DNA from: Ancylobacter gelatini
Lineage (GTDB): Bacteria > Pseudomonadota > Alphaproteobacteria > Rhizobiales > Xanthobacteraceae
NCBI RefSeq assembly: GCF_022601675.1
Contig: NZ_JAKVIL010000008.1
Span: forward strand, 124,001 to 188,000
Reading direction: 5' to 3'
DNA: 64,000 nucleotides
Shown here: one piece after another, positions 8,384 through 61,114 of the stretch
How the letters are laid out: each line of letters opens with the position of its first letter
Numbering within the stretch: the first letter of the stretch is position 1
Made by a program: the position numbers and the translations under genes
Notes under the pieces: model-generated
What the model was told of the DNA's origin: nothing
Databases searched by the model: none
The model's input: only the letters and a program-made list of their open reading frames with translations

Positions 8384-8412
8384 TTGACGCCAAAGCTGGC
8401 CGAAACTATCAT
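8384..8412 (+). promoter_or_regulatory. Sigma70-type promoter of the aminotransferase/importer operon
   Basis: A -35 hexamer TTGACG (8384-8389) and a -10 hexamer TATCAT (8407-8412) are separated by exactly 17 bases. The 16-bp palindrome of the LacI-type operator starts at the very next base, so a bound repressor would cover the transcription start. The same spacing recurs at 14937-14965. Confidence 0.7.
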
Positions 8413-8428
8413 GATTAAACGTTTAATT
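8413..8428. promoter_or_regulatory. Putative LacI-family operator, copy 1
   Basis: GATTAAACGTTTAATT, palindromic except for the last base pair, with the central CG step typical of LacI/GalR operators. It abuts the -10 box of the promoter of the class IV aminotransferase operon. A fully palindromic copy lies at 14921-14936, upstream of both the LacI-family gene and the divergent RraA/aminotransferase operon. Confidence 0.75.
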
Positions 8429-8472
8429 ATCCGCGTGCAGCCGTTTACGTCACCCGACCCGTGGAGACTTCG

Positions 8473-9435
8473 ATGCCGGCCGAAACCGTTCTGAGCGCTG
8501 CGCCCGCCGATGCCGCGACCCCCGCCCGGTGGCCGGCCGGCGCCGCCTACATGGACGGGGCCTACATGCCGGTGTCCGAGGCGCGCATCCCGGTCACCGA
8601 CTGGGGCTTTCGGCGCTCGGACGTGACCTATGACGTGGTGAGCGTGTGGGACGGCAGCTTCTTCCGCCTCGACGACCATCTGCGCCGCTTCCGCGCCTCG
8701 ATGGAGTCGATGCGCCTCAAGCCGAAGGAGAGCGACGACGAGATCCGCGCCATCCTGCACCGCCTCGTCGCGCTGTCCGGCCTGAAGAACGCCTATGTCG
8801 CGATGGACTGCCTGCGCGGGCGCCCGCAACCGGGGATGAAGTATCACCCGGTCAACGCCCGCAACTATCTCAGCGCCTATGCCGTGCCCTTCGTCTGGCT
8901 GATGGCGCCGGAGATCGTGGACCGCGGCGCCCACATGATCGTCGCCTCGACCCCGCGCATCCCGCAGTCGAGCGTCGACGCCCGCGCCAAGAATTTCCAC
9001 TGGGCGGACATGACCGCGGGCCTGTTCGAGGCCCATGACCAGGGCGCGGACAACCCGATCCTGCTCGACCATGACGGCAACGTCACCGAGGGGCCGGGCT
9101 TCAACGTGTTCTGCGTCACCGATGGCGTGGTCTCCACCCCGGCGACCAATGTGCTCGAAGGCATTACCCGCCTGTCGGTCATCGACCTGTGCGCCGAGCT
9201 GGGCATTCCCTGCGAGATCCGCACCGTGCCGCTGGCGGAACTGCGCGACGCCGACGAGGTGTTCCTCTCCACCACGGCCGGCGGCGTCGTTGGCGTGACC
9301 CGGCTCGACGGCCGCATTCTCGGCAATGACCGCCCCGGCGCGCTCACCCAGCGCCTGCGCGAGACCTACTGGGCCAGGCGCGCGGCCGGGTGGAATGCCG
9401 AGCCGGTGAATTACGACCTTCCCTCTGAAGACTGA
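8473..9435 (+). CDS. Class IV PLP-dependent aminotransferase (BCAT/D-amino-acid transaminase-like)
   Basis: A 320-residue fold-type IV transaminase. The PLP lysine is K173 in RAKNFHW, the conserved glutamate region is VTEGPGFNVFCV, and the phosphate-binding segment STTAGGVVGVTR lies near the C-terminus. Family members transaminate branched-chain amino acids, D-amino acids or (R)-amines; the N-terminal half (DWGFRRSDVTYDVVSVW) does not let me decide. I prefer the ATG at 8473, which has GGAG 7 bases upstream, over an in-frame GTG at 8461. It is the first gene of an operon with an Aap-like importer (the substrate-binding gene starts 38 bases after its stop) and sits behind a LacI-type operator, so it probably acts on an imported amino acid. 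Confidence 0.85.
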   Translation: MPAETVLSAAPADAATPARWPAGAAYMDGAYMPVSEARIPVTDWGFRRSDVTYDVVSVWDGSFFRLDDHLRRFRASMESMRLKPKESDDEIRAILHRLVALSGLKNAYVAMDCLRGRPQPGMKYHPVNARNYLSAYAVPFVWLMAPEIVDRGAHMIVASTPRIPQSSVDARAKNFHWADMTAGLFEAHDQGADNPILLDHDGNVTEGPGFNVFCVTDGVVSTPATNVLEGITRLSVIDLCAELGIPCEIRTVPLAELRDADEVFLSTTAGGVVGVTRLDGRILGNDRPGALTQRLRETYWARRAAGWNAEPVNYDLPSED

Positions 9436-9473
9436 CCCCCTCCCTATCCCCCGCTTCACCCGAAGGATTGGCC

Positions 9474-10538
9474 ATGCGTGAACGTGCTCGTGACGTATTG
9501 AAGAGGCTTGCGCTGTGCGCGGGCGTGTCGGCGGCGCTTGCCGTGACGACCGCCGGCGCCATGGCGCAAAGCTCGCTGCCGGCCCCCGGCCCGACGGTCG
9601 AGGCGATCAAGAAGCGCGGCGAACTCATCTGCGGCGTCGATGCCGGCATTCCCGGTTTCGCGTTCCAGGACTCCGCCGGCAAGTGGAAGGGCTTCGACGT
9701 CGCCTATTGCCGCGCCATCGCGGCCGCCGTGCTGGGCGATCCGGAGAAGGTGAAATATGTCGGCCTGACCGCCAAGGTGCGCTTCACCGTGCTGCAGGCC
9801 GGCGAGATCGACGTGCTGATCCGCGACAGCACGCTCACCTTCTCCCGCGACGTCCAGCTCGGCCTTACCGAGGTCGCGATCAACTTCTACGCCGGCCAGG
9901 GCTTCATGGTGCGCAAGAGCCTCGGCGTGAAGGAGGCCAGCGAACTCAACGGCGCCACGCTGTGCATGGTCACCGGCGCGACGCTGGAACTCAACATCGC
10001 CGACTATGCCCGCGCCAAGGGCGTGACCATCAACTCGCTGCTGTTCGAGAAGACCGAGGAAGCCTTCGCCGCCGCCGAGGCCGGCCGCTGCGACGGCTAC
10101 ACCGACGACACCGGCTCGCTCGCCGCCGCCCGCTCCACCATGAAGGTGCCGGACGACTGGGTGATCCTCTCGACCGTCATCTCCAAGGAGCCGCTCGGCA
10201 TTCATGTGCGCGACGGCGACGAGCGCTGGCGCGACGTCACCTTCTGGGTCGACGCGGCCCTCAAGGAAGCCGAGGAGTCCGGCGTGACCAAGGCCAATGC
10301 CGACGATCTGAAGACCACCTCGAAGAACCCCTTCGTGATGCGCCTGCTCGGCTCGGAGGGCGATTTCGGCAAGCTGCTCGGCCTCGACCCGGAATGGGCG
10401 CTGCGCGCGATCAAGGCCGACGGCAATTACGCCGAGATCTACGACGCCTATTTCGGACCCAAGGCCCTCGGCCTGCCGCGCGCCCTCAACAATCTGTGGA
10501 CCAATGGCGGCCTGCACTACCCGCTGCCGTTCCGTTGA
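9474..10538 (+). CDS. Periplasmic amino-acid-binding protein of an Aap-type ABC importer
   Basis: A 354-residue substrate-binding protein (SBP_bac_3 family, AapJ-like). The signal peptide covers about residues 1-31 (Arg-rich start, hydrophobic stretch LALCAGVSAALAVTTAG, cleavage after AMAQ). The mature protein begins with the family opening TVEAIKKRGELICGVD, and the segment GFDVAYCRAIAAAVLGD is typical of polar-amino-acid binders. The ATG at 9474 has AAGGA 7 bases upstream, better than the TTG at 9468. It is followed by two permease genes, in the order aapJ-Q-M. No ATPase gene follows. The ligand is probably a polar or general L-amino acid; specificity is an inference. Confidence 0.88.
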   Translation: MRERARDVLKRLALCAGVSAALAVTTAGAMAQSSLPAPGPTVEAIKKRGELICGVDAGIPGFAFQDSAGKWKGFDVAYCRAIAAAVLGDPEKVKYVGLTAKVRFTVLQAGEIDVLIRDSTLTFSRDVQLGLTEVAINFYAGQGFMVRKSLGVKEASELNGATLCMVTGATLELNIADYARAKGVTINSLLFEKTEEAFAAAEAGRCDGYTDDTGSLAAARSTMKVPDDWVILSTVISKEPLGIHVRDGDERWRDVTFWVDAALKEAEESGVTKANADDLKTTSKNPFVMRLLGSEGDFGKLLGLDPEWALRAIKADGNYAEIYDAYFGPKALGLPRALNNLWTNGGLHYPLPFR

Positions 10539-10559
10539 TCGGATCGGGCGCGTCACGTC

Positions 10560-11696
10560 ATGAAGGACAGCAGTACCGGGCTCTGGCCGATGAAGAACGC
10601 GCACGCCCTGCTCTGGCAGGGCGTGCTGCTCCTGGCCACCGGGCTGCTGGCCCTCTGGTTCGGCGGCAATGCCGCCGAGCATCTCGCCCGTCGCGGCATG
10701 AGCCTCGACTTCGGCTTTCTCGGGCAGACCGCGGGCTTTGACATCCCGTTCCACATCCTGCCCTTCGCCTCCACCGACACCTATCTCAAGGCCCTCGGCA
10801 TCGCCTTCCTGAACACGGTTCTGGTCGCGGTGCTCGGCATCCTCGCCGCCTCCGCTCTCGGCCTGACGCTGGGCATCATGCGGCTCTCGGCCAACTGGCT
10901 GGTGCGCAACACCGCCGGCGTCATCGTCGAGGTGGTGCGCAACACGCCGCAACTGCTTCAGATCGTGTTCTGGTATGTCGGCGTACTTCAGGTGCTGCCG
11001 CAGGCGCGCCAGAGCCTCTCGCTGGCCGATACCGTTTTCCTCAACATTCGCGGGCTGTTCGTGCCCGCCCCGCTCGCCTCGCCCGCCACGCTCCCGCTGC
11101 TGGCGGCATTGGTGCTCGCTCTCGTCGCCGTGCCGCTGATCCGCCATCGCCTGCCGGATGCGCGCGGCCGGACCCGCTGGCTGTGGCTGGTGCCGCCGGC
11201 GCTGCTCGCCGCACTCATCGCCACGCTGGACGGCTGGAGCGTGCCGAAGCTGCAGGGCTTCAACTTTTCCGGCGGCATCACCCTGCCGCCCGAGCTGGTC
11301 GCGCTGTGGGCGGGCCTCACCCTCTACACCGCCGCCTTCATCGCCGAGATCGTGCGGGCCTCGATCGCCGGCGTCGGCAAGGGCCAGACCGAGGCGGCGC
11401 GCAGTCTCGGGCTGAAACCCTGGCTGACGCTGCGCCTCGTCGTGCTGCCTCAGGCGCTGCGGGTGATGATCCCGCAGGTGACCAGCCAGTACCTGAACCT
11501 GATCAAGAGTTCCTCGCTCGGTGCCGCCATCGCCTATCCCGAGATCGTGCAGATCTTCGCCGGCACGGTGCTGAACCAGTCGGGCCGCGCCATCGAGGTG
11601 ATGGTCATCGTCATGCTGGTGTTCCTCGCCGTGAACCTCGCCGCCTCCGCGGCGCTGGAGCGGGTGAACGCCGCCACCGCGCTGAAGGAGCGCTGA
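10560..11696 (+). CDS. Amino-acid ABC transporter permease, AapQ-like
   Basis: A 378-residue inner-membrane permease of the His/Glu/Gln/Arg family. After a first helix (about 14-35) and a periplasmic segment, the core transmembrane domain contains the ATPase-docking EAA loop, EAARSLGLKPWLTLRLVVLPQ, split here as EAARSLGLK and RLVVLPQALR, near residues 280-300. A long insert between the first helix pairs (about 150-240), with extra hydrophobic segments, is a feature of AapQ/AapM-type permeases. The start at 10560 has no clear ribosome-binding site; an in-frame ATG at 10590 is an alternative. It lies 21 bases after the binding-protein gene and 3 bases before the second permease. Confidence 0.87.
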   Translation: MKDSSTGLWPMKNAHALLWQGVLLLATGLLALWFGGNAAEHLARRGMSLDFGFLGQTAGFDIPFHILPFASTDTYLKALGIAFLNTVLVAVLGILAASALGLTLGIMRLSANWLVRNTAGVIVEVVRNTPQLLQIVFWYVGVLQVLPQARQSLSLADTVFLNIRGLFVPAPLASPATLPLLAALVLALVAVPLIRHRLPDARGRTRWLWLVPPALLAALIATLDGWSVPKLQGFNFSGGITLPPELVALWAGLTLYTAAFIAEIVRASIAGVGKGQTEAARSLGLKPWLTLRLVVLPQALRVMIPQVTSQYLNLIKSSSLGAAIAYPEIVQIFAGTVLNQSGRAIEVMVIVMLVFLAVNLAASAALERVNAATALKER

Positions 11697-11699
11697 TCC

Positions 11700-12752
11700 A
11701 TGACCGAGCGCCTTCGTTCCTGGATCCACGCCAACCTGTTCAGTTCGCGGCTCAACGGCTTCCTCACGCTGGTGATGCTGGCGCTGCTCGCCCTGACGCT
11801 GCCGCCGCTGCTGCGCTGGGCGTTTCTCGACGCGGTCTATGCCGGGGCCGACCGTTCGGTGTGCGGGGCCGGGGCGTGCTGGGCGTTCATCGATGCCCGG
11901 TTCGACCAGTTCTTCTATGGCCGCTATGCCCCCTCCGAGCGCTGGCGCATCAACCTCGCGGCGCTGGTGCTGGCGCTGTTTGCGGCGGGGGCGATGTGGC
12001 CGCGCAATCCCCGTCGCACGGAATGCGTGATCCTGCTGGTCACGCTGTGCCCACTGATCGCCGGCGTGCTGCTGGTGGGCGGGGTGTTCGGCCTCAAACT
12101 GGTGCCGACCGACCAATGGGGCGGGCTGACGCTGAACGTGGTGCTCACCTATGCCACCACCGCCATCGCGCTGCCGCTCGGCGTGCTGCTGGCGCTGGGG
12201 CGGCGCTCGCGCCTGCCGGTGGTGCGCTGGCTGTCGATCGGCTTCATCGAGATCTGGCGCGGCGTGCCGCTGCTCACCGTGCTGTTCATGGCGACGGTGA
12301 TGCTGCCGATGTTCCTGCCCGACGGGCTGACGCTCGACCGGCTGGTGCGCGCCATTCTCGGCCTGTCGCTGTTCGTCGCCGCCTATATGGCGGAGGTGGT
12401 GCGCGCCGGGCTCCAGGGCATTTCCAAGGGTCAGTACGAGGCCGCCGCCGGGCTCGGGCTCGGCTATTGGCGCGCGCACCGGCTGATCATCCTGCCACAG
12501 GCGTTCCGGCTGATCGTGCCGGGCATCGTCAACACGGTGATCGACCTGTTCAAGGACACGACGCTGGTCTCGATCATCGGCCTGTTCGACATTCTCGGCA
12601 TTGTCGGCCAGTCGACCAAGGACCCGGCCTGGCTCGGCCTCGGGCGCGAGGGCTATGTGTTCGCGGCGTTCGTGTTCTTCGTGTGCTGCTTCTCGCTCTC
12701 GCTCTACAGCCAGAGCCTGGAACGCAAGATCGCCCGCAGCGGCGGCCACTGA
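11700..12752 (+). CDS. Amino-acid ABC transporter permease, AapM-like
   Basis: A 350-residue inner-membrane permease and partner of the preceding AapQ-like protein in a heterodimeric channel. Hydrophobic helices at about 20-40 and 85-135 precede the core domain. The EAA loop YEAAAGLGLGYWRAH lies near residue 245, followed by LIILPQAFRLIVPGIVNT and the conserved FKDTTLVSIIG. In characterised Aap/Bzt systems the next gene encodes the ATPase AapP; here a bidirectional hairpin terminator follows at once, and the next gene runs the other way. The importer must borrow an ATPase encoded elsewhere or be inactive. Confidence 0.87.
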   Translation: MTERLRSWIHANLFSSRLNGFLTLVMLALLALTLPPLLRWAFLDAVYAGADRSVCGAGACWAFIDARFDQFFYGRYAPSERWRINLAALVLALFAAGAMWPRNPRRTECVILLVTLCPLIAGVLLVGGVFGLKLVPTDQWGGLTLNVVLTYATTAIALPLGVLLALGRRSRLPVVRWLSIGFIEIWRGVPLLTVLFMATVMLPMFLPDGLTLDRLVRAILGLSLFVAAYMAEVVRAGLQGISKGQYEAAAGLGLGYWRAHRLIILPQAFRLIVPGIVNTVIDLFKDTTLVSIIGLFDILGIVGQSTKDPAWLGLGREGYVFAAFVFFVCCFSLSLYSQSLERKIARSGGH

Positions 12753-12767
12753 GCGACGCTCAAGCAA

Positions 12768-12801
12768 AAGGGCCGGAACGGGGATGCCCGCTCCGGCCCT
12801 T
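12768..12801. terminator. Bidirectional hairpin terminator
   Basis: A 34-base inverted repeat, AAGGGCCGGA ... TCCGGCCCTT with an inner CGGG/CCCG stem and loop GATG. It separates the convergent importer operon (plus) and class III aminotransferase operon (minus). The plus side has AAGG/CCTT at the base, but no long U-tract. Confidence 0.7.
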
Positions 12802-12821
12802 GTCGTTTGAACGACGGTCTC

Positions 12822-14120
<1,299 letters not shown>

Positions 14121-14210
14121 GGAAATTTCCTCTGGCGGCGGGGCGGTGGCGAACGACGCGCATCCCCGGCGCCGCTCCGCCGCCCGGGGTGCGAGACGAT
14201 GGGCGGCGGC

Positions 14211-14879
14211 TCAGAGCACGCCGTATTTCGCGTAGACATCCGCGAGCTTCAGCCCCTCTTCGAGGTGCTGACGCGTCTGGTTCTCGCCATTGATCTTGGC
14301 GAGCGCGGCCGCGATCACCTCAAGGGCGATGTCGGCAGGGATCACCACCACGCCATCGACATCGCCGAACACCAGGTCGCCGGGATGGACCAGCACGCCG
14401 GCGCAGGCGACCGGAACGTCCTTGGCCATCATCTTGCCGCGCCCCTTGGAATCGAGCGGCCCGATGCCGCCATGGAACACCGGGAAGCCCATCTTGCGGA
14501 TGTGCCGGACATCGCGCACCAGCCCGTCCGTCACGCAACCCGCCGCCCCGCGAATCCGCGCGGCGGTCGACAGCAATTCGCCCCAGGGCGCGATCCGCTC
14601 GGTCGGCCCGTCGCAGCCGAACACCGCCACGTCGCCGGGCCCGAGATCGTCGACCAGCGCGATTTCGATGTCATAGGGATTCTCGCCCTCGCCCACCGCA
14701 TAGACGTTCATGTACAGCCCGGTGCGCGCCCGCCCGAACATCACCGCCTCCTCGTCGAGAGGACGGATGAACGGGCGCATCGCCTGCTCCCGGCGGCCGA
14801 AATCATCCAGAACGTCGGACAGCACACTGGAATATAATACCGTCTTGAGATGGGCGAAATCGATGTCGGTCACGGGCAT
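14211..14879 (-). CDS. RraA-family protein, probable 4-hydroxy-2-oxo acid aldolase
   Basis: A 222-residue protein of the RraA/HMG-aldolase family. It shows the family core GELLSTAARIRGAAGCVTDG followed by VRDVRHIRKMGFPVF, with an arginine and aspartate at the expected metal/pyruvate pocket, then HPGDLVFGDVDGVVVIP. Characterised members cleave 4-hydroxy-4-methyl-2-oxoglutarate or 4-carboxy-4-hydroxy-2-oxoadipate to pyruvate, or decarboxylate oxaloacetate; a few inhibit RNase E. The setting, between a transaminase and an amino-acid importer, favours a metabolic enzyme. It is the first gene of the minus-strand operon; its promoter (14937-14965) carries the operator palindrome just downstream of the -10 box. 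Confidence 0.8.
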   Translation of the reverse strand: MPVTDIDFAHLKTVLYSSVLSDVLDDFGRREQAMRPFIRPLDEEAVMFGRARTGLYMNVYAVGEGENPYDIEIALVDDLGPGDVAVFGCDGPTERIAPWGELLSTAARIRGAAGCVTDGLVRDVRHIRKMGFPVFHGGIGPLDSKGRGKMMAKDVPVACAGVLVHPGDLVFGDVDGVVVIPADIALEVIAAALAKINGENQTRQHLEEGLKLADVYAKYGVL

Positions 14880-14920
14880 CAGCGGGGCATTCCAGTGGCA
14901 TGGGCGGTTGAAAACAAAAA

Positions 14921-14936
14921 GATTAAACGTTTAATC
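14921..14936. promoter_or_regulatory. Putative LacI-family operator, copy 2
   Basis: GATTAAACGTTTAATC, a perfect 16-bp palindrome in the intergenic region between the RraA-like gene and the LacI-family gene. It shares 15 of 16 bases with the copy at 8413-8428. On the minus strand it starts one base after the -10 hexamer of the RraA promoter. It may also autoregulate the LacI gene. Confidence 0.8.
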
Positions 14937-14965
14937 ACGCTAGGCTTGTTTCCCGGACCCGTCAA
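14937..14965 (-). promoter_or_regulatory. Sigma70-type promoter of the RraA/aminotransferase operon
   Basis: Read on the minus strand: -35 TTGACG (14965-14960), 17-base spacer, -10 TAGCGT (14942-14937), then the operator from 14936. The arrangement is base-for-base the same in spacing as the promoter at 8384-8412. Confidence 0.65.
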
Positions 14966-15002: not shown

Positions 15003-16019
15003 ATGCCGTCTCGCCCCACGCTTCACACCGTTGCCGCTGCCGCGGAGGTTTCCATCGCCACGGTGTCGAAAGTGGTGAACGGCATCACGGCCGGGGTATC
15101 CGAGGCGACGCGCCTGCGGGTGGAGAACGCGATCCAGCAGCTCGGCTACCGGCCGAACCGGCTCGGGCGAGGCCTGCGCACCCTGCGCCATTCGGCGATC
15201 GGTATGGCGATCGTCGACCCCTCCCCCACCTTCCTCACCGATCCGTTCACCACCAATCTGGTGGCGGGCCTCGCCAATGTGCTCAGCCAGCACGGCTTCG
15301 GATTGCTGATCCAGGGGGTGAAGCCGGGCCAGCTCGAACAATCGCTGCTGGTCAAGCGCAGCGATGTCGACGGGCTGTGCACGCTGTGCTGCGGCACGCC
15401 GCGCGAGCGGCGCGCCATCGTCCGCCTGCTGGCAAGCCTCGGCCAGCCACTGGTGGCCTTTCAGGAAGCGCCGGATGCCGAGGTGCCCGACACCTGCTTC
15501 GTGCGTCAGGATGACCGGAGCGGCGGCGCGGCGCTCGGCCGGCGCATTCTGGCGCGGGGCTCGAAACGGGTCAGCCTGTTCATCGCCAATGTCACCTGGC
15601 CGGCGGTGGAGGAGCGCATTCTGGGGCTGCGCTCCGTGCTCGCGCCGGCGGGCGTGATGCTGAACATCACGACCTGCGACGACAGCCGCATCGACGACAT
15701 CACGCGCGCCGTCGCCTCCCATATCGACCGCGAGGGCCTGCCGGACGCGCTGGTCGGGCAGAACGACCAGATCGCCCTCGCCGCGATGAAGCTGCTGAAG
15801 TCGCGCGGGCTCATCATCCCGCACGAGGTGACGGTCTACGGCTTCAACGGCTTTGCCTTCAGCGCCTTCGCCGACCCGAGCCTGACCACGATCCGGTCGC
15901 CGGCCTATGAGCTGGGCGTGGCGGGCGGCGAATTGCTGCTGGAGCGGCTGGATGCCGGCCGGTTCTCTGTCATGGAGCGCACGCTGCCGGTCACCTTCAT
16001 TCCCGGCGAATCCGGCTGA
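15003..16019 (+). CDS. LacI-family transcriptional regulator
   Basis: A 338-residue repressor with the LacI helix-turn-helix at the N-terminus (TLHTVAAAAEVSIATVSKVVNG in the region 6-27) and hinge GYRPNRLGRGLRTLR, then a periplasmic-binding-protein-like effector domain (about 60-335). The ATG at 15003 begins just before the HTH, as in the family. It is divergent from the RraA/aminotransferase operon, and the palindrome at 14921-14936 lies between them. The same palindrome 6.5 kb upstream precedes the class IV aminotransferase/importer operon, so this regulator most likely represses both. The effector is probably a product of the pathway, but cannot be named. Confidence 0.88.
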   Translation: MPSRPTLHTVAAAAEVSIATVSKVVNGITAGVSEATRLRVENAIQQLGYRPNRLGRGLRTLRHSAIGMAIVDPSPTFLTDPFTTNLVAGLANVLSQHGFGLLIQGVKPGQLEQSLLVKRSDVDGLCTLCCGTPRERRAIVRLLASLGQPLVAFQEAPDAEVPDTCFVRQDDRSGGAALGRRILARGSKRVSLFIANVTWPAVEERILGLRSVLAPAGVMLNITTCDDSRIDDITRAVASHIDREGLPDALVGQNDQIALAAMKLLKSRGLIIPHEVTVYGFNGFAFSAFADPSLTTIRSPAYELGVAGGELLLERLDAGRFSVMERTLPVTFIPGESG

Positions 16020-51548: not shown

Positions 51549-52115
51549 ATGGGCGCGAACGGCACGACCTATCCGCGCTGGAGCTGGGCGCTGACTGGCT
51601 CCGGGCATTTTTTCACCGAGTCCATCGCGCTGATCAAGCAATTGCCCGCCGTCGACCTGTTCGTCTCGAAGGCGGCGGACGAGGTCCTGCGGATGTACAA
51701 GCAGGAATTGCCGGAGGGCACCCGCATCTTCAGGGAAACCACCGCCAGCTCCGCTCCGGTCGGCCGGTTCTATGAGGGCCTGTACCACACGCTCGTGGTC
51801 TCGCCGGCCTCGTCCAACACCGTGGCGAAATGCGTGTTCGGCATTTCCGACACGCTGGTGACCAACTGCTTCGCGCAGGCCGGCAAATGCCGGGTGCCCT
51901 CGATCGTGTTTGCCTGCGACACCGCGCCGGAGATGATCACCATGGCGCCCAAGGGGCCGGTCTCGGTCTATCCGCGCCGCATCGACCTCGAAAACACCGC
52001 CAAGCTCAAGGAGTTTGACGACACGACGGTGGTCGAATCCATCGAGGACCTGACGAGCGCCATCGCGGCCCGTACCCGCTGGCTGGCGGGTGAAGGCGCG
52101 TCGGCGCATGGCTGA
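51519..52115 (+). CDS. afpA: Flavoprotein DmrB/AfpA (dihydromethanopterin reductase-like)
   Basis: A 198-residue flavoprotein of the archaeal type found in H4MPT islands (AfpA/DmrB). The FMN-binding fold starts at SWALTGSGHFFTESIALIKQ and continues with TTASSAPVGRFYEGLYHTLV and VVSPASSNTVAKCVFGISD. The characterised DmrB of Paraburkholderia is a dihydromethanopterin reductase, so this protein probably makes the reduced cofactor in the last step. The start codon lies within a 15-bp duplication, so the N-terminus is MSTDDMSTDD or MSTDD. It overlaps both neighbours (ATGA with the kinase, 8 bases with the next gene). Confidence 0.82.
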   Translation: MSTDDMSTDDMGANGTTYPRWSWALTGSGHFFTESIALIKQLPAVDLFVSKAADEVLRMYKQELPEGTRIFRETTASSAPVGRFYEGLYHTLVVSPASSNTVAKCVFGISDTLVTNCFAQAGKCRVPSIVFACDTAPEMITMAPKGPVSVYPRRIDLENTAKLKEFDDTTVVESIEDLTSAIAARTRWLAGEGASAHG

Positions 52116-53559
52116 GCCCCCATCGGCGGAGCGGCCGTCACGACCGGAAAAGGTCGCCCTCGTCACCGGCTCACTCGCCGAGCCGCGCCTCGCCAAGATC
52201 GCCGGCGACATCGCCGATGCCAGCCTTGATCCGGTCGTGGTGAGTGTCGGGGTCAAGGTCGCGGCACTGATGACCGCCGAGATTGTGGAACGCCGGCTCA
52301 AGATCCCCGAAGGCACCGACCGCGTGCTGATGCCCGGACGGTTTCGCGGCGACCTCGAAAGGCTGGAGCGCTTCTTCGGCGTGCCGTTTGCGCGCGGGCC
52401 GGACGAGGTGGCCGATCTGCCGGATTATTTCGGGCTGGAGCGACGGGCGGTCGACCTGTCGAAGCACGACGTCACCATCTTCGCCGAGATCGTCGACGCG
52501 ACCAGGATGGACATTCCCGCCCTCATCGAGCGCGCGCGCTTCCTCAAAGGCGAGGGCGCGGACGTGATCGACCTCGGCTGCCTGCCCGATACGCCGTTCC
52601 CGCATCTGGAAGACGCCATCGCCGCGCTGCAGGCGGAAGGCCTGCGGGTCAGCGTCGACTCCTTCGACCCGGCCGAACTCGCTCGCGCCACCCGCGCCGG
52701 CGCCGATTTCCTGCTGAGCCTGAACGAGACCAATCTCGACATCGCGAAGGAAGGCGCCGCCGTGCCGGTGCTGGTGCCGGCAAAGCAGGGCGACCTCGAC
52801 TCGCTGGTCCGCGCCGTCGAGGCCTGCCTTGCCAGCGGACAGCCCTTCTATGCCGACCCGATCCTCGACCCGATCCACTACGGCTTCACGCCGTCCATCG
52901 TGCGTTATGCCGAGCTGAGGCGGCGTTTTCCCGACATTCCCATGCTGATGGGCATCGGCAATGTCACCGAACTGACCGACGCCGACACCACCGGCATCAA
53001 CGCGCTGCTGATGGGCATGATATCGGAGCTGCGCATCCAGGCGGTGCTGGCGGTGCAGGTCAGCCCGCATTGCCGCACGGCGGTGCGGGAATTCGACCGG
53101 GCGCGGCGGGAATTCTACGCGGCCCGGCAGGCCGGCGCGCTGCCTCAAGGGTTTGGCGGCGGGCTGATGGCGCTGCGCGATCGCAAGCCTCACGCCGCCA
53201 GCCCGGAGGATATCGCCCGGCTCGCCAGCGAGGTGCGCGACCGCAATTTTCGCATCGATGTCGCCGCCGATGGTATCCATGTCTATAATCGCGACGGTCA
53301 TCAGATTGCCGACGAACCTTTCGCGCTGTTCCCGCATCTGGGCGTGGAAGGCGATGGCGCGCATGCCTTCTATCTCGGCGTGGAGACCGCCCGGGCGGAA
53401 ATCGCCTACAAGCTGGGCAAGCGCTACGCGCAGGACGAGGGGCTGAAATGGGGCGCGGCGGGCGAGATCGCCGGTAGCCCCGAGGCGGCGCATCGTTTGA
53501 CATTCAAGGAAGCCGGCACGACGCTGGCCGCGAAGAAAAACAAGGGCGAAGCCGAATGA
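52108..53559 (+). CDS. Dihydropteroate synthase-like protein with N-terminal DUF6513-type domain
   Basis: A 483-residue protein. The N-terminal third (about 8-130) is the domain fused to archaeal-type dihydropteroate synthase-related proteins (ALVTGSLAEPRLAKIAGDIA). From about 130 the TIM-barrel shows DIPALIERARFLKGEGADVIDLG, SVDSFDPAEL and FLLSLNETNLDIAK, the pattern of MJ0107-type enzymes that make a methanopterin precursor in place of 7,8-dihydropteroate (the first motif is given in part here). The C-terminal segment DGIHVYNRDGHQI is uncharacterised. It overlaps the flavoprotein gene and DUF447 gene (ATGA). Role: condensation of the pterin and arylamine in H4MPT synthesis, by inference. 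Confidence 0.8.
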   Translation: MAEPPSAERPSRPEKVALVTGSLAEPRLAKIAGDIADASLDPVVVSVGVKVAALMTAEIVERRLKIPEGTDRVLMPGRFRGDLERLERFFGVPFARGPDEVADLPDYFGLERRAVDLSKHDVTIFAEIVDATRMDIPALIERARFLKGEGADVIDLGCLPDTPFPHLEDAIAALQAEGLRVSVDSFDPAELARATRAGADFLLSLNETNLDIAKEGAAVPVLVPAKQGDLDSLVRAVEACLASGQPFYADPILDPIHYGFTPSIVRYAELRRRFPDIPMLMGIGNVTELTDADTTGINALLMGMISELRIQAVLAVQVSPHCRTAVREFDRARREFYAARQAGALPQGFGGGLMALRDRKPHAASPEDIARLASEVRDRNFRIDVAADGIHVYNRDGHQIADEPFALFPHLGVEGDGAHAFYLGVETARAEIAYKLGKRYAQDEGLKWGAAGEIAGSPEAAHRLTFKEAGTTLAAKKNKGEAE

Positions 53560-54122
53560 TCCGCGAGACCATCGTCACCACCCGCTCGGCCTCCGGCGAG
53601 CCGCATATCGCGCCGATGGGTGCGACGGTGATCGAGGGCGGCTATCTCCTCCAGCCATTCCGCCCCTCGCGCACGCTGGACAATCTGGTCGCGACCCGCA
53701 TCGCGGTGGTGAACTTCACCGATGACGTGCGCATCTTCGCCGGCTGCGTGGTCGGGCGGCGCATGAATGTGGATGTCAGCAAGTCGGTCTATCTCGACTG
53801 CCCGCGCCTGTCCGACGCCATCGCCAATGACGAGGTGACGGTGGAGCGCATCGAGGAGGATCCCCACCGGCCGAAAATCTACTGCAAGACCTATTACCGC
53901 GACAATCACAAGCGCTTCGAGGGCATGAACCGCGCAAAGGCCGCGGTACTGGAAGCCGCAGTGCTGGCGAGCCGGCTTGATATGCTCACCGACGAGAAGG
54001 TCGACCAGGAGATGGCCTATCTTGCCATCGCGGTCGAGAAGACCGCCGGGCCTGACGAGCTGGAGGCGTGGGGCTGGGTGCAGGAGGCCATCGCCGAGCA
54101 TCGCCGCAGGCGGGCATCATGA
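53556..54122 (+). CDS. DUF447 family protein of the H4MPT island
   Basis: A 188-residue protein of the DUF447 family, which looks like a flavin-reductase-like split barrel: IRETIVTTRSASGEPHIAPMG opens it (in part) and VATRIAVVNFTDDVRIFAG forms the central strand pair. DUF447 members occur in methanogens and in methylotrophic bacteria, in gene islands for methanopterin-linked C1 metabolism, without a proven reaction. It is coupled by ATGA overlaps to both neighbours. Confidence 0.82.
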   Translation: MIRETIVTTRSASGEPHIAPMGATVIEGGYLLQPFRPSRTLDNLVATRIAVVNFTDDVRIFAGCVVGRRMNVDVSKSVYLDCPRLSDAIANDEVTVERIEEDPHRPKIYCKTYYRDNHKRFEGMNRAKAAVLEAAVLASRLDMLTDEKVDQEMAYLAIAVEKTAGPDELEAWGWVQEAIAEHRRRRAS

Positions 54123-54853
54123 GCGCCGGACACGGCACGGCGGCGCCTGCGACCGGACTGCTCGCCAGCGTCGCGGACCTTGCCGAGATGGAACTCGCCC
54201 GGGTCGGCGGCGCCGATATCATTGACCTGAAGCAGCCCGCCTTCGGGGCGCTCGGCGCGTGGAGCGTCGAGGCGCTGATCTCCGCCGTCCAGCTCTGGCG
54301 CGGCTGGGGGCCCGCCGCCCCCGCACTCTCGGCCACTGCCGGAGACCAGCCCATGGTGCCGGTGCTGCTGCGCACCGCCGCGGAGCGCGTGGCGGCGACC
54401 GGCGTGCCCCTCGTCAAGGTCGGCCTGTTCGCCTCGCCCTCCATGGAAGCGTGCATCGAGGCGCTGGCGCCGCTTGCCGACGCCCACCGGCTGATCGGCG
54501 TCCTGTTCGCCGACCAGCAGCTGGATTTCGCCGTTGTCGGCGCGCTGGGGCGGGCGGGCTTTTCCGGCATCATGCTCGATACCGCCGACAAGAAATCCGG
54601 TCCGCTGACCGCTCATCTCGACCCGCTGACGCTTGGCCAGTTCGTGCAGGAGGCTCGCCGGCACGGGCTGATGACCGGCCTTGCCGGCTCGCTGACCCTC
54701 GACGACATCGCCCCGCTCGCCATGGTGGGGCCGGATTATCTCGGTTTTCGCGGAGCGCTATGCGCGCAGGGGCGCACCGGGACGCTGGACCCGGCACGGC
54801 TGGCGCAGGTGCGCGCCCGGCTACCGGCGCAGGCCGGCACCGCGACGGGTTGA
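54119..54853 (+). CDS. mfnB: (5-formylfuran-3-yl)methyl phosphate synthase
   Basis: A 244-residue TIM-barrel enzyme of the DUF556 group. In methanogens MfnB condenses two glyceraldehyde-3-phosphate molecules to 4-HFC-phosphate, the furan of methanofuran. The active-site motif GGADIIDLKQPAFGALGAW gives the Schiff-base lysine region of MJ1099 (DIIDxKxP); KVGLF and LDTADKKSGPLTAHLD carry further lysines. It ends the plus-strand biosynthetic operon (overlap ATGA with DUF447), and makes the furan part of the methanofuran analogue used by the Fhc complex encoded 2 kb away. Confidence 0.86.
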   Translation: MSAGHGTAAPATGLLASVADLAEMELARVGGADIIDLKQPAFGALGAWSVEALISAVQLWRGWGPAAPALSATAGDQPMVPVLLRTAAERVAATGVPLVKVGLFASPSMEACIEALAPLADAHRLIGVLFADQQLDFAVVGALGRAGFSGIMLDTADKKSGPLTAHLDPLTLGQFVQEARRHGLMTGLAGSLTLDDIAPLAMVGPDYLGFRGALCAQGRTGTLDPARLAQVRARLPAQAGTATG

Positions 54854-55066
54854 CTCGACGCACCGGAAGGTCCACTGAGCGCCCCGCCGCGCGCTTTCGT
54901 CATCGCGGCGCAACCGGAACCCCCTAGCCATGTCCAGCGACAGTCAAAGTCGATTGTTTATGCCGCCGGTGGCCGCCGCGGCCTGATCCGCGAAGGGTAA
55001 TCCTCCCCGCGCATCCGGCTCTCCGTGCGACCGCCCCTGCGGCCGTCGACGGAAAGAAGAGCCCGA

Positions 55067-56443
55067 ATGAGCGATCCGCGTAACGAGACCACTCTCGACC
55101 ACGTTCTGCACGAGGCCGGCCCTGCCTTGCCGGCACGCGAGCACATTGCCGACATCGCCGCCCGCCTGAATGAACTCGACGACATCGCCGCCGCCACGCT
55201 GGTGGCGCGGCTGCCGCATGAGCAGGTCATCGAACTGCTCGACCACCCGGAATTCGACCAGTCGGTGCGCATTCTCGAAGCGCTGCCGACCGGGGAGGCC
55301 GCGCTCCTGGTCGCCGGCATGTCGGCCGACCGCGCGGCCGACCTGTTCGCCGAGATGGATCAGCGCGCGGGAGCCCGCCTCATGGCGGCGCTGGACCCGG
55401 AGACGCGCGCGGCGATCAAGCGACTGCTCACCTTCCCGCCGGACACCGCCGGCAGCCTGATGACCACCGAATTCGTCTCGGTACCCGCGACCTGGACGGT
55501 CGGCCAGACGCTGGAACATATCCGGCAGGTCGAGCGCACCCGCGAGACGGTCTACGCGATCTATGTACTGGATCCGTCAAGCGGAAAGCTCATCAAGGCG
55601 GTGTCGCTACGCCGGCTCATTACCGGCGCGCCTGACGACCCCATCCTTTCCGTCGCCGCCGCGCCCGACCCGATCACCACTGGCCCGCTGGCGGACCGGG
55701 AGGATGTCGCGCGGCTGTTCTCCAAATACGATCTGCTGGCGGTGCCGGTGGTCGACGACGCCGGCATCGTGATCGGCATCGTGACGGTCGACGACATGAT
55801 CGACGCCATCATCGAGGAATCGACCGAGGACGTGCAGAAGTTCGGCGGCATGGAGGCTCTGGACGAGCCCTATATGGAGATCGGCTTCCTGAACATGCTG
55901 AGGAAGCGTGCCGGCTGGCTTTGCATCCTGTTCGTCGGCGAGATGTTCACCGCAAGCGCCATGCAGCATTTCGAGGACGAGCTGGAGCGCGCGATCGTGC
56001 TGACCCTGTTCATCCCGCTGATCATGAGTTCAGGAGGCAACTCCGGCTCGCAGGCGACCTCGCTGATCATTCGCGCGCTGGCGCTGCACGAGATCAAGCT
56101 CGGCGACTGGTGGCGGGTGGCGCTGCGTGAGTTGCCCTCGGGGCTCGCGCTCGGTTCGATCCTCGGCGCGCTCGGCATCATCCGCATCTCCGCCTGGCAG
56201 ATGCTGGGCCTGCACGATTATGGCGAGCACTGGATGCTGATCGCGGCCACCATCGGCGCCTCGCTGCTGGCGATCGTCACCTTCGGCTCGATGCTCGGCT
56301 CGATGCTGCCCTTCGTGCTGCGCCGTCTCGGCTTCGACCCCGCAAGCGCCTCGGCGCCGTTCGTGGCGACCTTCATCGATGTCACCGGACTGGTGATCTA
56401 CTTCTCGGTGGCTCTGGCCATCCTCTCGGGAACGCTGCTCTAG
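55067..56443 (+). CDS. mgtE: Magnesium transporter MgtE
   Basis: A 458-residue protein. The N-terminal helical domain (about 1-130) has LNELDDIAAATLVARLPHEQ and is followed by two CBS domains (about 135-260), then five membrane helices with the conserved SSGGNSGSQATSLIIRAL and PFVATFIDVTGLVIYFSVAL. By family knowledge the N-terminal and CBS domains sense cytosolic magnesium and gate a Mg2+ channel. I start it at ATG 55067. It lies between the two halves of the C1 island but is not known to take part in it. The 213-base leader has GC-rich hairpins but no recognisable Mg riboswitch. Confidence 0.9.
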   Translation: MSDPRNETTLDHVLHEAGPALPAREHIADIAARLNELDDIAAATLVARLPHEQVIELLDHPEFDQSVRILEALPTGEAALLVAGMSADRAADLFAEMDQRAGARLMAALDPETRAAIKRLLTFPPDTAGSLMTTEFVSVPATWTVGQTLEHIRQVERTRETVYAIYVLDPSSGKLIKAVSLRRLITGAPDDPILSVAAAPDPITTGPLADREDVARLFSKYDLLAVPVVDDAGIVIGIVTVDDMIDAIIEESTEDVQKFGGMEALDEPYMEIGFLNMLRKRAGWLCILFVGEMFTASAMQHFEDELERAIVLTLFIPLIMSSGGNSGSQATSLIIRALALHEIKLGDWWRVALRELPSGLALGSILGALGIIRISAWQMLGLHDYGEHWMLIAATIGASLLAIVTFGSMLGSMLPFVLRRLGFDPASASAPFVATFIDVTGLVIYFSVALAILSGTLL

Positions 56444-56456
56444 GTCACGCACCCGG

Positions 56457-56479
56457 CCCTCTCCCCGTCGGGGAGAGGG
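56457..56479. terminator. Bidirectional hairpin between mgtE and fhcC
   Basis: A perfect 10-bp stem, CCCTCTCCCC / GGGGAGAGGG, with loop GTC, sits midway between the convergent genes. There is no U-tract on either side. Confidence 0.75.
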
Positions 56480-56487
56480 TGCCCGGT

Positions 56488-57288
56488 CTATTCGGGCACC
56501 AGCACCTCGCCCTGCCCGCCCAGGAGCACATCCCCGACCAGACGGCGCGCGCGCGTCGCCTTGTCGAGGAAACCCGAAAGGTCGGGCACACGGCGGGCCA
56601 TGAGCTGGAGCGCGATCAGTTCCTGCGTGCCGGTATCGACAAAGCCTGCCGGCAGCTCGGGAACCGTGCGCGTCAGCACCGTGCCGCGCTTCATGCCGCG
56701 CCCCATGAGGGGGCCGATGGCGCCGAGCACGCAGACCGTGCCAGCAATCATCTCGGTGGCGAGGCCTTCGCCGGCGTCGCCCTCGATCACGATCAACCCG
56801 CCGCGCTGGCGCTCGGCCGCGCGGGGACCCGCCGATCCCGTGATCCGTATGACGCCGCCCGACATGCCGCGCCGCGAACCGGACGACGCCGCGCCGAGCC
56901 GCGCCCCGGCACGGCCCGCGACCTTGATGCGCCCACCGGACAGTTCGGCGCCGAGGAAATCGCCGGTACCGCCGGCAATGCGCAGCGTGCCGCCGGACAT
57001 GCCATGCCCGGCCCAGGCACCGACCGGCCCGTCGACCAGCAACTCGCCGCCATCCATCTTCGCGCCGACATGATCGAGCCGGGGGTCGCCAATCTCGATC
57101 ACCAGCGAGCCCTCCGGCCCGCGCTCGACGAAGAACAGCTCTGCCAGCGGCACAGCGCGCCCGCCGCAGGGCAGCATCATCTGCTCGATCTCGCGCAGCG
57201 AGAGCCCGGCAAAGGTGCCAGGCGTGACGCTGGAGAGGTCCACCCGCGCTTCCAGCGCCGCGCGGGGCTTGAGAACCGCACCGCTCAT
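56488..57288 (-). CDS. fhcC: Formyltransferase/hydrolase complex subunit C
   Basis: A 266-residue protein homologous to subunit C of formylmethanofuran dehydrogenase (FwdC/FmdC) and to the GXGXG beta-helix of glutamate synthase. Short repeats of the type GGxxxVxG run through residues 75-210, such as MSGGTLRIAGGTGDFLGAEL and LSGGRIKVAGRAG. It stabilises the complex with FhcA, B and D. The start ATG (57288) overlaps the fhcD stop by one base (TGATG). It is the last gene of the pcd-fhcB-fhcA-fhcD-fhcC operon. Confidence 0.93.
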   Translation of the reverse strand: MSGAVLKPRAALEARVDLSSVTPGTFAGLSLREIEQMMLPCGGRAVPLAELFFVERGPEGSLVIEIGDPRLDHVGAKMDGGELLVDGPVGAWAGHGMSGGTLRIAGGTGDFLGAELSGGRIKVAGRAGARLGAASSGSRRGMSGGVIRITGSAGPRAAERQRGGLIVIEGDAGEGLATEMIAGTVCVLGAIGPLMGRGMKRGTVLTRTVPELPAGFVDTGTQELIALQLMARRVPDLSGFLDKATRARRLVGDVLLGGQGEVLVPE

Positions 57289-58208
57289 CACGCCGCTCCC
57301 GGATTTGCGCCCGCGCCCATGATCTCGCGCAGCTTGAAGTGGAAGGGGCCGAGATTGCCGCCGTAATTGCCGGCATCGATCGCGACGATGCCGCCGTCGG
57401 CACCGATGGCGCACACCGCCTCGATCCCGACGCGAGTGGCCTGAGAGACCGCCTCGAAGCTCACGCCGTCGATCACGATCTCCAGAACCGAGCCGACCTC
57501 GGGCGGCAGTGCGCTGGGCCGGACGCCGCGCAGCGTCGGGCAATAAGCGTCGTTGGTGGAGGCGAACAGGCCCTTGTATTTGGAGCCGACCTTGGAGCCG
57601 GAGCGCACCACCCCGCCGGGGAATGGCAGGATGATGCCCTCCACCGTCGTCATCGCCTTCACGGCCGCCTCGGCGGCATGCAGCGCCTGCGCGCGGGTGC
57701 GGGCAAGAATGAGAAAATTACCGCCGCCGACGCCTTCCACCGAGCCGGTGTCCTCGTCGCAGACGAACTCGCCTTCCATCACCGGCAGGCGCCAGAAGCG
57801 CTTCTGGTCGATCTTCTTGGAAATCTGGAAGCCATCGGCGAAATAGCGGATGGTCTTGGCCAGCGGCACCCGCTTGCCGGTGTCGATGCCGGCATAGCAG
57901 GCCGTGGTCGGGCAGGTCAGGATGCACTGGCCGAGGCGCAGCGGCACGACTTTCTTCAGCGAGCCGAAATCCATCGCGAAGATCAGGATGGCGACGCCGG
58001 GTCGCCCGTCCGGGGTCTCGCTCGCCGGAATCTCCCGCTCCACCGCCGCCTCGCAGCCGCAGCCGATGACCGAGGTCGCAAAGCCCGTGGTGGTGCGCCC
58101 GGCGATCATCGCCCATTCCGGCGTGTCGGCGGTGATGATCAGCCGCGTGCCGACCATCGGGAAGGCCTCGGCGAAGGTGTCGCGTATCTCGACGCCGTTG
58201 AGAATCAT
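57288..58208 (-). CDS. fhcD: Formylmethanofuran:tetrahydromethanopterin formyltransferase (subunit D)
   Basis: A 306-residue enzyme (Ftr family). It moves the formyl group from formyl-H4MPT to the methanofuran analogue for hydrolysis to formate, in the oxidative direction in methylotrophs. Typical segments are AEAFPMVGTRLIITADTPEW, CILTCPTTACYAGIDTG, and the C-terminal IDAGNYGGNLGPFHFKL. The ATG at 58208 (MILNG) is used as it overlaps the fhcA stop by ATGA; an in-frame start six residues upstream is possible. Confidence 0.94.
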   Translation of the reverse strand: MILNGVEIRDTFAEAFPMVGTRLIITADTPEWAMIAGRTTTGFATSVIGCGCEAAVEREIPASETPDGRPGVAILIFAMDFGSLKKVVPLRLGQCILTCPTTACYAGIDTGKRVPLAKTIRYFADGFQISKKIDQKRFWRLPVMEGEFVCDEDTGSVEGVGGGNFLILARTRAQALHAAEAAVKAMTTVEGIILPFPGGVVRSGSKVGSKYKGLFASTNDAYCPTLRGVRPSALPPEVGSVLEIVIDGVSFEAVSQATRVGIEAVCAIGADGGIVAIDAGNYGGNLGPFHFKLREIMGAGANPGAA

Positions 58209-59860: not shown

Positions 59861-61114
59861 TCAACCCTCCGCTATGCATCGCACAGCCTCGGCGACGCTC
59901 GGAAGCGTCGCGACGCGCAGGGCGCCGAGCGGCAGGCTCACAATTGAATCCATGCGGAACACCGTGCCCGCATGATCGACGCCCGGCGTGCCCACGGGGA
60001 TGAACACGTCCGGCGCCGCCTCAAAAACCGTCTCGGGATGGGCAAGGGCGATCACCTTGCCGGAAAAGCGCGGCGGCGGCTCCGGTCTCAGCGCGCTGAC
60101 CCAGACCATGAGATCGGCATCCTCAAGCGCCGCGCCGGTCTCGAACAGGGTCGAATCATGCTCGGACCCGCCGGCCCGCACTGCCGTACGCAGCGGATAG
60201 CCGAGCCGCCACAGCAGCAGCTGGTTGACGCCGATGATGTTGTCGCGCCCGCCCAGCGGGAACACGCCGGCCCGCGTCGTCACGTTCAGCGCGTCGACGA
60301 GGGCGGTGGCCCGGGTGGCGACGAGGTCACCCTCGTCGAGCGTCGCCGCATTCCACGTCACCACCGCATAGGCAGCGCCCTTGAGCGCCGCTGCCACGTC
60401 GGCGAGAGCCTCAACCGCCACGCCGCCATAGGCCTCGCCCGGCAGCGCGCGCCCGGCGAGCAGGCCGGAGATGGCTTCGAGCGCCGCGACCGCATCTTCG
60501 GCCGCCAAATGCGTCACGCGGGCACGGGCGAGCTGGTCGCGCGCCTTCTCGCCCGGTCCTCCCCCTAGGAAGATCACCCGCCGCTCGCCGGTCGCGAACA
60601 GCGGGGTAGCGGGGTAGAGCCGCTCGAACAGCCGCCCGAAATGCGGGGTCGGGTCTTCGCCCACCACCAGCAGCACGTCGCAGCGGTTGCGCACCTCAGC
60701 CAGCGTCACCGACAGCCAGCCGGTGCGCTGCGCGGCGGCATAGTTCCGGAACAGGGCGGGCGAGGCGTAATGGTCCAGCACGCCGCCGAAACGGGCGGCG
60801 AGGTCGACCAGCGCCCCGGCTCCCGCCATGTCGACGCCGAGCCCGGCAATGACCGGCGCCCGTGCCGCGCGCAGCAGGGCCTGGGCCTGTGCCGCCGCCT
60901 CGGCGCCGGAAACCGCCTCGCCACCAAGGGCCGGAGCCGGATCGGCCACGTCGCGACGGCGCAGCAGGCGGGCGGCCTCGGCGCAGACGGTGCCGCCGCC
61001 CGCGCCAATTGCACGCACGTCGCGCCCCGTCACCTCGACGGAAAGATCATCGCAGCCGAGCCCGCAGAAGGCGCAGACGACATCGGTGAAAGTCTCGGTC
61101 CAATGATCAGCCAT
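59861..61114 (-). CDS. fhcB: Formyltransferase/hydrolase complex subunit B
   Basis: A 417-residue protein related to the tungsto/molybdopterin subunit FwdB/FmdB of formylmethanofuran dehydrogenase. In bacteria the Fhc complex is a hydrolase and does not oxidise formate, so FhcB is considered structural. Here the N-terminal cysteines of the iron-sulfur site (CAFCGLGC, residues 15-22) and a fourth Cys about 20 residues later are still present, while the stretch where archaeal subunits carry the metal-ligand cysteine reads ASPALFRNYAA, without cysteine. It follows pcd by 5 bases and runs directly into fhcA. Confidence 0.92.
   Translation of the reverse strand: MADHWTETFTDVVCAFCGLGCDDLSVEVTGRDVRAIGAGGGTVCAEAARLLRRRDVADPAPALGGEAVSGAEAAAQAQALLRAARAPVIAGLGVDMAGAGALVDLAARFGGVLDHYASPALFRNYAAAQRTGWLSVTLAEVRNRCDVLLVVGEDPTPHFGRLFERLYPATPLFATGERRVIFLGGGPGEKARDQLARARVTHLAAEDAVAALEAISGLLAGRALPGEAYGGVAVEALADVAAALKGAAYAVVTWNAATLDEGDLVATRATALVDALNVTTRAGVFPLGGRDNIIGVNQLLLWRLGYPLRTAVRAGGSEHDSTLFETGAALEDADLMVWVSALRPEPPPRFSGKVIALAHPETVFEAAPDVFIPVGTPGVDHAGTVFRMDSIVSLPLGALRVATLPSVAEAVRCIAEG

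What the first reader, a model, noticed from the sequence alone, without database searches (positions are those of the whole stretch)
8384..14965. Two divergent operons share one operator/promoter architecture under a LacI-family regulator
The promoter at 8384-8412 and the one at 14937-14965 (minus strand) both read TTGACG-N17-TA(T/G)C(A/G)T, and each is followed with no gap by GATTAAACGTTTAAT(T/C). This is far too similar to be chance, and the second copy lies beside a LacI-family gene. It defines a three-transcript regulon: class IV aminotransferase + importer, RraA-like aldolase + class III aminotransferase, and the regulator itself. I do not know a described regulon of this composition.
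Basis: partly seen in the sequence, partly recalled or inferred. Interest (0 to 1): 0.75.

Follow-up and report, generated by a model that had tools for sequence, protein, structure and literature searches.

The report
Two operons, one LacI-type switch
Two neighbouring groups of genes, probably for taking up and breaking down an unidentified amino-acid-like compound, carry the same on/off DNA site beside their promoters, very probably read by the repressor gene next door; this is an ordinary kind of bacterial switch on an unusual set of genes.

Summary
TTGACG-N17-TANCNT followed at once by GATTAAACGTTTAAT(T/C) occurs at 8384-8428 (+) and 14965-14921 (-); these are the only two such palindromes (up to 2 mismatches) in the 4.31-Mb genome. 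The link to the neighbouring regulator is well supported. In the 9 genomes where I found this LacI at 48% identity or more (own included), TTAAACGTTTAA occurs only at the lacI-rraA module (11 of 11 sites). In the genus, the 3 of 30 genomes with this LacI are the 3 with the site. TTGACG-N17-TANNNT precedes 11 of 11 sites, with 0-3 bases between. The 12 less related LacIs read have another recognition helix, and none has the site in its 15-20 kb. One correction: the two operons converge; only rraA and lacI are divergent. Best reading: a local repressor covering both transcription starts; effector and pathway unknown. In relatives the switch and RraA aldolase go with a TRAP importer plus D-2-hydroxyacid dehydrogenase, with an amino-acid ABC importer, or with neither. 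The AT4/Aap-like operon under this switch was seen only here. New member of a known kind.

The parts
8384..8412 (+). sigma-70-type promoter, TTGACG-N17-TATCAT, of the class IV aminotransferase/importer operon
   Evidence: read; found by the promoter scan (10 of 12 matches); layout kept at 11 of 11 sites
8413..8428 (.). operator 1, GATTAAACGTTTAATT
8473..9435 (+). AT4: class IV PLP aminotransferase; nearest solved relatives are amine transaminases, several named (R)-selective
   Evidence: PF01063; phmmer E 4.7e-77 to 8zm7 'Amine transaminase'; below the cut-offs of all 19 NCBIfam families matched
9474..10538 (+). AapJ-like amino-acid-binding protein (best other match 54% in the rows listed from 397 genomes)
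   Evidence: PF00497
10560..11696 (+). AapQ-like permease; 47% to its best paralogue, on contig C15
   Evidence: PF00528
11700..12752 (+). AapM-like permease; no ATPase gene follows before the facing operon
   Evidence: PF00528; gene order
12768..12801 (.). inverted repeat AAGGGCCGGA...TCCGGCCCTT between the convergent operons, possible two-way terminator
   Evidence: read; not reported by the terminator scan, whose loop limit of 8 it exceeds
12822..14120 (-). AT3: class III aminotransferase of the glutamate-1-semialdehyde-aminomutase type, not an assigned equivalog
   Evidence: PF00202; GntE 389.4 bits (cut-off 525), PRK00062 382.9 (cut-off 398), hemL 361.1 (cut-off 527.3)
14211..14879 (-). 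RraA-like aldolase/decarboxylase with E101-X20-R122-D123
   Evidence: PF03737; aligned to 3noj; motif
14921..14936 (.). operator 2, GATTAAACGTTTAATC, in the rraA-lacI divergent region
14937..14965 (-). promoter TTGACG-N17-TAGCGT of the rraA-AT3 operon
15003..16019 (+). LacI-family regulator, recognition helix region IATVSKVVN
   Evidence: PF00356, PF00532 and PF13377

Best explanation
The LacI-family protein encoded at 15003-16019 is a local repressor of two operons that face each other. Its dimer binds the 16-bp palindrome (core TTAAACGTTTAA, central CpG), which lies directly behind the -10 box and so covers the expected transcription starts (about 8419 and 14930), shutting out RNA polymerase. 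An unknown small molecule, probably the imported compound or a catabolite of it, releases it. Operator 2 lies 66 bp upstream of lacI and probably also sets lacI's own level. Shown by computation: the sites, their uniqueness in the genome, the conserved promoter-operator layout, and co-occurrence with this LacI. Inferred: binding, repression, autoregulation. Pathway (inference, about 30%, not covered by the confidence below): an amino acid is imported by the AapJQM-like system, using an ATPase encoded elsewhere, and AT4 turns it into a 4-hydroxy-2-oxo acid. RraA cleaves this to pyruvate plus an aldehyde, and AT3 handles the amino or aldehyde product. In relatives under the same switch a D-2-hydroxyacid dehydrogenase with a TRAP importer may make the same kind of 2-oxo acid.
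For: Two sites only in 4.31 Mb, reversed control 0. TTAAACGTTTAA at 11 places in 9 of 9 genomes with this LacI, all 11 inside the lacI-rraA module, reversed control 0 of 9. In the genus, 3 of 30 have both LacI and site and 27 of 30 have neither (the reversed pattern hits 2 of 30). TTGACG-N17-TANNNT at 11 of 11 sites, palindrome centre 8-11 bases behind the -10; two of the 11 are identical copies in one genome. The nine site-bearing LacIs lie on one side of a branch with 95/95 support and all read ATVSKVVN; 0 of 12 others have that helix or the site in their 15-20 kb. RraA beside or near lacI in 8 of 8 close loci and 7 of 12 others.
Against: No binding or expression data. Operator 1 with the AT4 operon was seen in this genome only, so its function rests on its sequence, not on conservation. 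In L040, L043 and L044 lacI is not beside the perfect site; only degenerate AAACGTTTAA sites lie upstream of it, 3.4 kb away in L044, so autoregulation is not uniformly shown. No + strand promoter for lacI was picked up by the scan, which also missed the rraA promoter. The pathway is unassigned: none of the three enzymes reaches an NCBIfam cut-off in the rows shown.
Confidence: 0.87

Rival explanations
1. Another LacI-family paralogue of the genome, not the neighbour, reads the palindrome.
For: LacI-type palindromes with central CG are the rule across the family (passages of PMC4052901); the search with this protein gave 16 first-look candidates in this genome, of which one passed E 1e-60.
Against: Presence of the site follows this LacI: 9 of 9 carriers, 0 of 27 congeners without it. 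The LacIs with the site form one side of a branch.
Confidence: 0.06
2. The protein acts as an activator or a dual regulator rather than a plain repressor.
For: None direct; some LacI-family members activate (recalled).
Against: The palindrome lies 0-3 bases behind the -10 at 11 of 11 sites, over the expected start, which suits repression and not activation.
Confidence: 0.05
3. Operator 1 (AT4 operon) is a chance or vestigial copy and only rraA-AT3 is regulated.
For: None of the 8 related loci has the AT4 operon, and none of ten AT4 neighbourhoods read in other genomes has this LacI or RraA; one outer base breaks the palindrome.
Against: Full promoter plus palindrome at identical spacing, one of only two in the genome; the outer positions also vary among the other sites.
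Confidence: 0.06

Closest known systems
Local LacI-family regulons (as reconstructed in Ravcheev et al. 2014, PMC4052901; passages read)
   Same: even 16-bp palindrome with central CG, sites 41-66 bp before the start codons (the paper: more than 75% at 30-140 bp), few targets, neighbouring regulator gene, probable autoregulation
   Different: that paper assigns 176 of 182 groups with a known pathway to carbohydrate metabolism; here the targets are two aminotransferases, an RraA-like protein and an amino-acid-type importer. 'Aminotransferase' and 'aldolase' do not occur in its main text
Sister lacI-ilvD/edd-rraA loci (L045, L047-L050) of the same order
   Same: related LacI (42-44%'s alignment), RraA 60-65%, palindromes of related form in four of the five at up to 3 mismatches (L045 only at 4)
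   Different: IlvD/EDD-type dehydratase in 5 of 5 (Pfam run on L047's), sugar-type ABC parts in L047 and L050, other recognition helix (MTVSNVLN) and other palindrome
HMG/CHA aldolase of the RraA superfamily (3noj; PMC5065237, passages read)
   Same: fold family, R-D pair aligned, acidic residue-X20-R-D spacing
   Different: weak similarity (67.4 bits), below the ligK_PcmE cut-off
(R)-selective amine transaminases, fold type IV
   Same: nearest solved structures; alignment runs through the AKNFHW/VKNLQW region that holds the catalytic lysine (lysine role recalled)
   Different: substrate untested; part of an amino-acid import operon

Membership tests
LacI-family regulator with local regulon | N-terminal LacI helix-turn-helix and periplasmic-binding-like effector domain | tested here: met
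   PF00356 55.1 bits (cut-off 27), PF00532 71.2 (cut-off 22.2)
LacI-family regulator with local regulon | even palindromic operator with central CG at the target promoters | tested here: met
LacI-family regulator with local regulon | few sites, close to the regulator gene | tested here: met
   2 sites in 4.31 Mb, both within 7 kb of lacI
LacI-family regulator with local regulon | operator co-occurs with the regulator across genomes | tested here: met
LacI-family regulator with local regulon | binding and effector response | not testable with these tools
   needs gel-shift and ligands
Glutamate-1-semialdehyde aminomutase (HemL) for AT3 | reaches the hemL equivalog cut-off | tested here: not met
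   361.1 against 527.3 bits
GntE (guanitoxin) aminotransferase for AT3 | reaches the GntE equivalog cut-off | tested here: not met
   389.4 against 525 bits
HMG/CHA aldolase for RraA | reaches the ligK_PcmE equivalog cut-off | tested here: not met
   102.4 against 304.5 bits
Class II pyruvate aldolase-like RraA | acidic residue-X20-R-D motif (motif form recalled) | tested here: met
   E101-X20-R122-D123; R-D aligned to 3noj
Complete Aap-type amino-acid ABC importer | binding protein, two permeases and ATPase in one operon | tested here: not met
   no ATPase gene between 12752 and the facing operon; another aap-like set with an ATP-binding protein on C15

The most novel reading that the evidence does not exclude
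An exchangeable catabolic module: a LacI switch with a fixed promoter-operator-rraA core, onto which different front ends for the 2-oxo acid have been fitted (TRAP importer plus D-2-hydroxyacid dehydrogenase; amino-acid ABC importer; here an (R)-amine-transaminase-like class IV enzyme with an Aap-like importer on a second copy of the promoter-operator unit). All feed an RraA-type aldol cleavage. It would give an (R)-selective amine transaminase a natural pathway, catabolism of a D- or hydroxylated amino acid.
Probability: 0.28. Interest if true: 0.5.

Novelty: new member of a known kind. Interest (0 to 1): 0.36.

Why it matters
It ties three enzymes without an assigned substrate and an importer into one regulon with an exact operator, so one inducer screen could give the substrate. 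LacI-family regulons outside sugar metabolism are a small minority in the published reconstruction, and relatives show the same switch beside different transporters. It is useful for annotation and for finding the natural role of an (R)-amine-transaminase-like enzyme. It is not a new mechanism.

Tried and rejected
Rejected: 'two divergent operons' (they converge). Rejected: HemL, GntE and HMG/CHA aldolase as names (cut-offs not met).

Considered: the AT4 operon conserved elsewhere. One search gave 27 matches in 26 of 397 genomes (own included); I read 11 neighbourhoods, ten in other genomes and the genome's own paralogue (L106-L116). None has a LacI or RraA match at E<=1e-8 and none a close copy of the AapJQM-like set. 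L106 and L107 do have a distant amino-acid-type ABC set near AT4 (binding protein 29%, permeases 31-37%). The other 15 matches outside the window were not read. Binding-protein search: 216 of 397 genomes match at E<=1e-95; apart from the window's own, no listed row exceeds 54%; not all rows were listed, and neighbourhoods were not read.

Plasmid records: 2 with a LacI relative (43%, 37%) and 1 with RraA (58%); not fetched. The genome-contig scan gave 3 loci; one (L008) is close, two (L009, L010; 24-26%) were dropped. Of 200 relatives, 2 others have GATTAAACGATTAATC next to distant LacIs (L006, L007; 25-29%); taken as other LacI regulons, not followed. Of the 27 LacI matches other than the window's own I took 17 neighbourhoods; ten at 39-44% were not taken.

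Paper searches: listings seen only, except passages of PMC4052901 and PMC5065237. None of the listed papers was seen to describe this regulon; one search was too loose to be informative. No structure prediction was run.
Full report
Observation. On the plus strand TTGACG (8384) and TATCAT (8407) are 17 bases apart and GATTAAACGTTTAATT follows without a gap (8413-8428). On the minus strand TTGACG (14965), TAGCGT (14942-14937) and GATTAAACGTTTAATC (14936-14921) repeat the layout. The palindrome at up to 3 mismatches occurs twice in the window against 0.01 expected, and at up to 2 mismatches at two places in the whole 4,308,108-base genome, reversed control 0. TTGACG-N17-TANNNT also occurs just twice in the window. 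A general promoter scan lists the first promoter and not the second, whose -10 is weak; it also lists one more site on the other strand there, with 0.5 expected in shuffles. The spacers and upstream flanks of the two copies show no evident similarity by eye, so if this was a duplication it is old; only the functional boxes agree.

Anatomy. The plus-strand operon is AT4 (8473-9435, Aminotran_4), an AapJ-like binding protein (9474-10538), and AapQ-like and AapM-like permeases (10560-11696, 11700-12752). The minus-strand operon is an RraA-like protein (14879-14211) and AT3, a class III aminotransferase (14120-12822). They run towards each other and end 69 bases apart, with an inverted repeat between them. 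lacI (15003-16019) is divergent from rraA. No ATPase gene is in the importer operon. A second aap-like set lies on contig C15: its AapQ is 47% identical, and binding protein, two permeases and an ATP-binding protein stand in a row (recognised from the start of their sequences, not by a family search). Sharing that ATPase is an inference.

Who reads the site. LacI relatives of at least 48% identity came from the family (2 of 198 genomes besides the own), the order (5 of 397 besides the own) and genome contigs (1): 8 loci besides the window. All 8 have an RraA of 69-71% identity beside or near lacI and a perfect TTAAACGTTTAA. Genome-wide, the 9 genomes hold 11 such sites and all 11 are in this module; the reversed pattern gives 0. 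In the genus, 3 of 30 genomes have the site and they are the same 3 that have the LacI (the reversed pattern hits 2 of 30). At all 11 sites a TTGACG-N17-TANNNT promoter precedes the palindrome, whose centre lies 8-11 bases behind the -10 box. Two of the 11 sites are identical copies in one genome.

Specificity. A tree of 21 LacIs puts the 9 site-bearing ones on one side of a branch with 95/95 support; three of the other rows sit on long branches. All 9 read ATVSKVVN in the recognition helix; none of the 12 others does, 9 of 12 reading MTVSN. None of the 12 has TTAAACGTTTAA in the 15-20 kb read; their whole genomes were not searched for it. In those 12 loci, sites within 3 mismatches of GATTTAACGTTAAATC occur 8 times against 0.18 expected from Markov sequence, in L047-L050, L052 and L056, each beside lacI or in front of a gene. 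I chose this second motif after seeing two of these sites, so its count is partly circular. The window's own motif at up to 3 mismatches gives 3 there against 0.22, two of them the same shifted sites. Operator and recognition helix may have changed together.

Gene content in relatives. D-2-hydroxyacid dehydrogenase with TRAP transporter: 5 of 8 (L008, L038, L039, L041, L042). Polar-amino-acid-type ABC set with ATPase: 3 of 8 (L040, L041, L043). Neither: 1 of 8 (L044). AT3: 3 of 8 (L008, L041, L042); in L041 it lies in front of the first operator, not behind it. An IlvD/EDD dehydratase lies about 1.5 kb from the operator in L040, L043 and L044. AT4 and the Aap-like set: 0 of 8. These are neighbourhoods; only the gene directly behind the operator is shown to carry the site. 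In L041 an exact 918-bp repeat contains promoter, operator and rraA, once behind AT3 and before the ABC set, once before the TRAP set. It shows the promoter-operator-rraA unit as a movable block, unless the assembly is at fault. In the sister loci L045 and L047-L050 an IlvD/EDD-type dehydratase accompanies RraA. Such enzymes can make 2-oxo-3-deoxy acids (family knowledge), which are 4-hydroxy-2-oxo acids, the substrate type of class II pyruvate aldolases.

Mechanism. The palindrome covers the expected start site, so steric repression is the most likely mode; binding and derepression are inferred. Autoregulation is inferred: in 6 of 9 loci the site lies between rraA and a divergent lacI (window, L008, L038, L039, L041, L042). 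In L040 and L043, where the two are apart, a degenerate site (YATSAAACGTTTAACC) lies just upstream of lacI, and in L044 a similar one lies 3.4 kb away.

Pathway. AT4 is nearest to amine transaminases, several named (R)-selective. RraA keeps E101-X20-R122-D123 and aligns with the HMG/CHA aldolase 3noj; PMC5065237 (passages read) says most such homologues carry one of two metal-binding motifs and thus likely act as class II pyruvate aldolases. AT3 is glutamate-1-semialdehyde-aminomutase-like but below the cut-offs, and it is one of eight matches to itself in the genome at E<=1e-20. A common plan would be: R-configured amino acid or 2-hydroxy acid to 2-oxo acid (AT4 here, D-2-hydroxyacid dehydrogenase elsewhere), RraA cleavage to pyruvate plus an aldehyde, and AT3 acting on the rest. 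This is a proposal, not a result.

Comparison with the literature. The LacI-family reconstruction of Ravcheev et al. (PMC4052901; passages only) reports mostly local, mostly autoregulated regulators, even palindromes with central CG, and 176 of 182 groups with an assigned pathway in carbohydrate metabolism. The present system has these site traits and unusual targets. The listings of searches showed no description of this regulon.

Verdict. A real, well-supported local LacI regulon with an unusual gene set; not seen described, and ordinary in kind.

Noticed in passing
L041:6182-7099 and 10466-11383: Exact 918-bp direct repeat holding promoter, operator and rraA, with different flanking genes on each side; a duplicated regulatory-gene block or an assembly fault.
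   Followed up: partly
L047, L048, L049, L050, L052, L056: Other LacIs of the order seem to use a shifted palindrome (about GATTTAACGTTAAATC) together with a changed recognition helix.
   Followed up: partly
window 9474-12752: Aap-like binding protein and two permeases without an ATPase gene; a set with an ATP-binding protein is elsewhere in the genome (L103).
   Followed up: partly
L106-L116: Relatives of AT4 (55-69%) sit in varied surroundings (different transporters; class III aminotransferases of 26-29% identity to AT3 in several), so the gene seems to move between operons.
   Followed up: partly
L056:6147-10898: A second, distant lacI locus in G311 with a class III aminotransferase (37%), a hydroxyacid dehydrogenase (33%) and, further on, an IlvD/EDD dehydratase, and a GATTTAACGTTAAGTC site in front of the aminotransferase.
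   Followed up: no
NZ_CP012399.1 (Chelatococcus sp. CO-6 plasmid) 241080-248290: A plasmid record holds a LacI relative (43%) and an RraA relative (58%) about 6 kb apart.
   Followed up: no
window 52090-61114: Genes that look from memory like the tetrahydromethanopterin C1 pathway (formylmethanofuran dehydrogenase-type subunits); not checked by any search.
   Followed up: no
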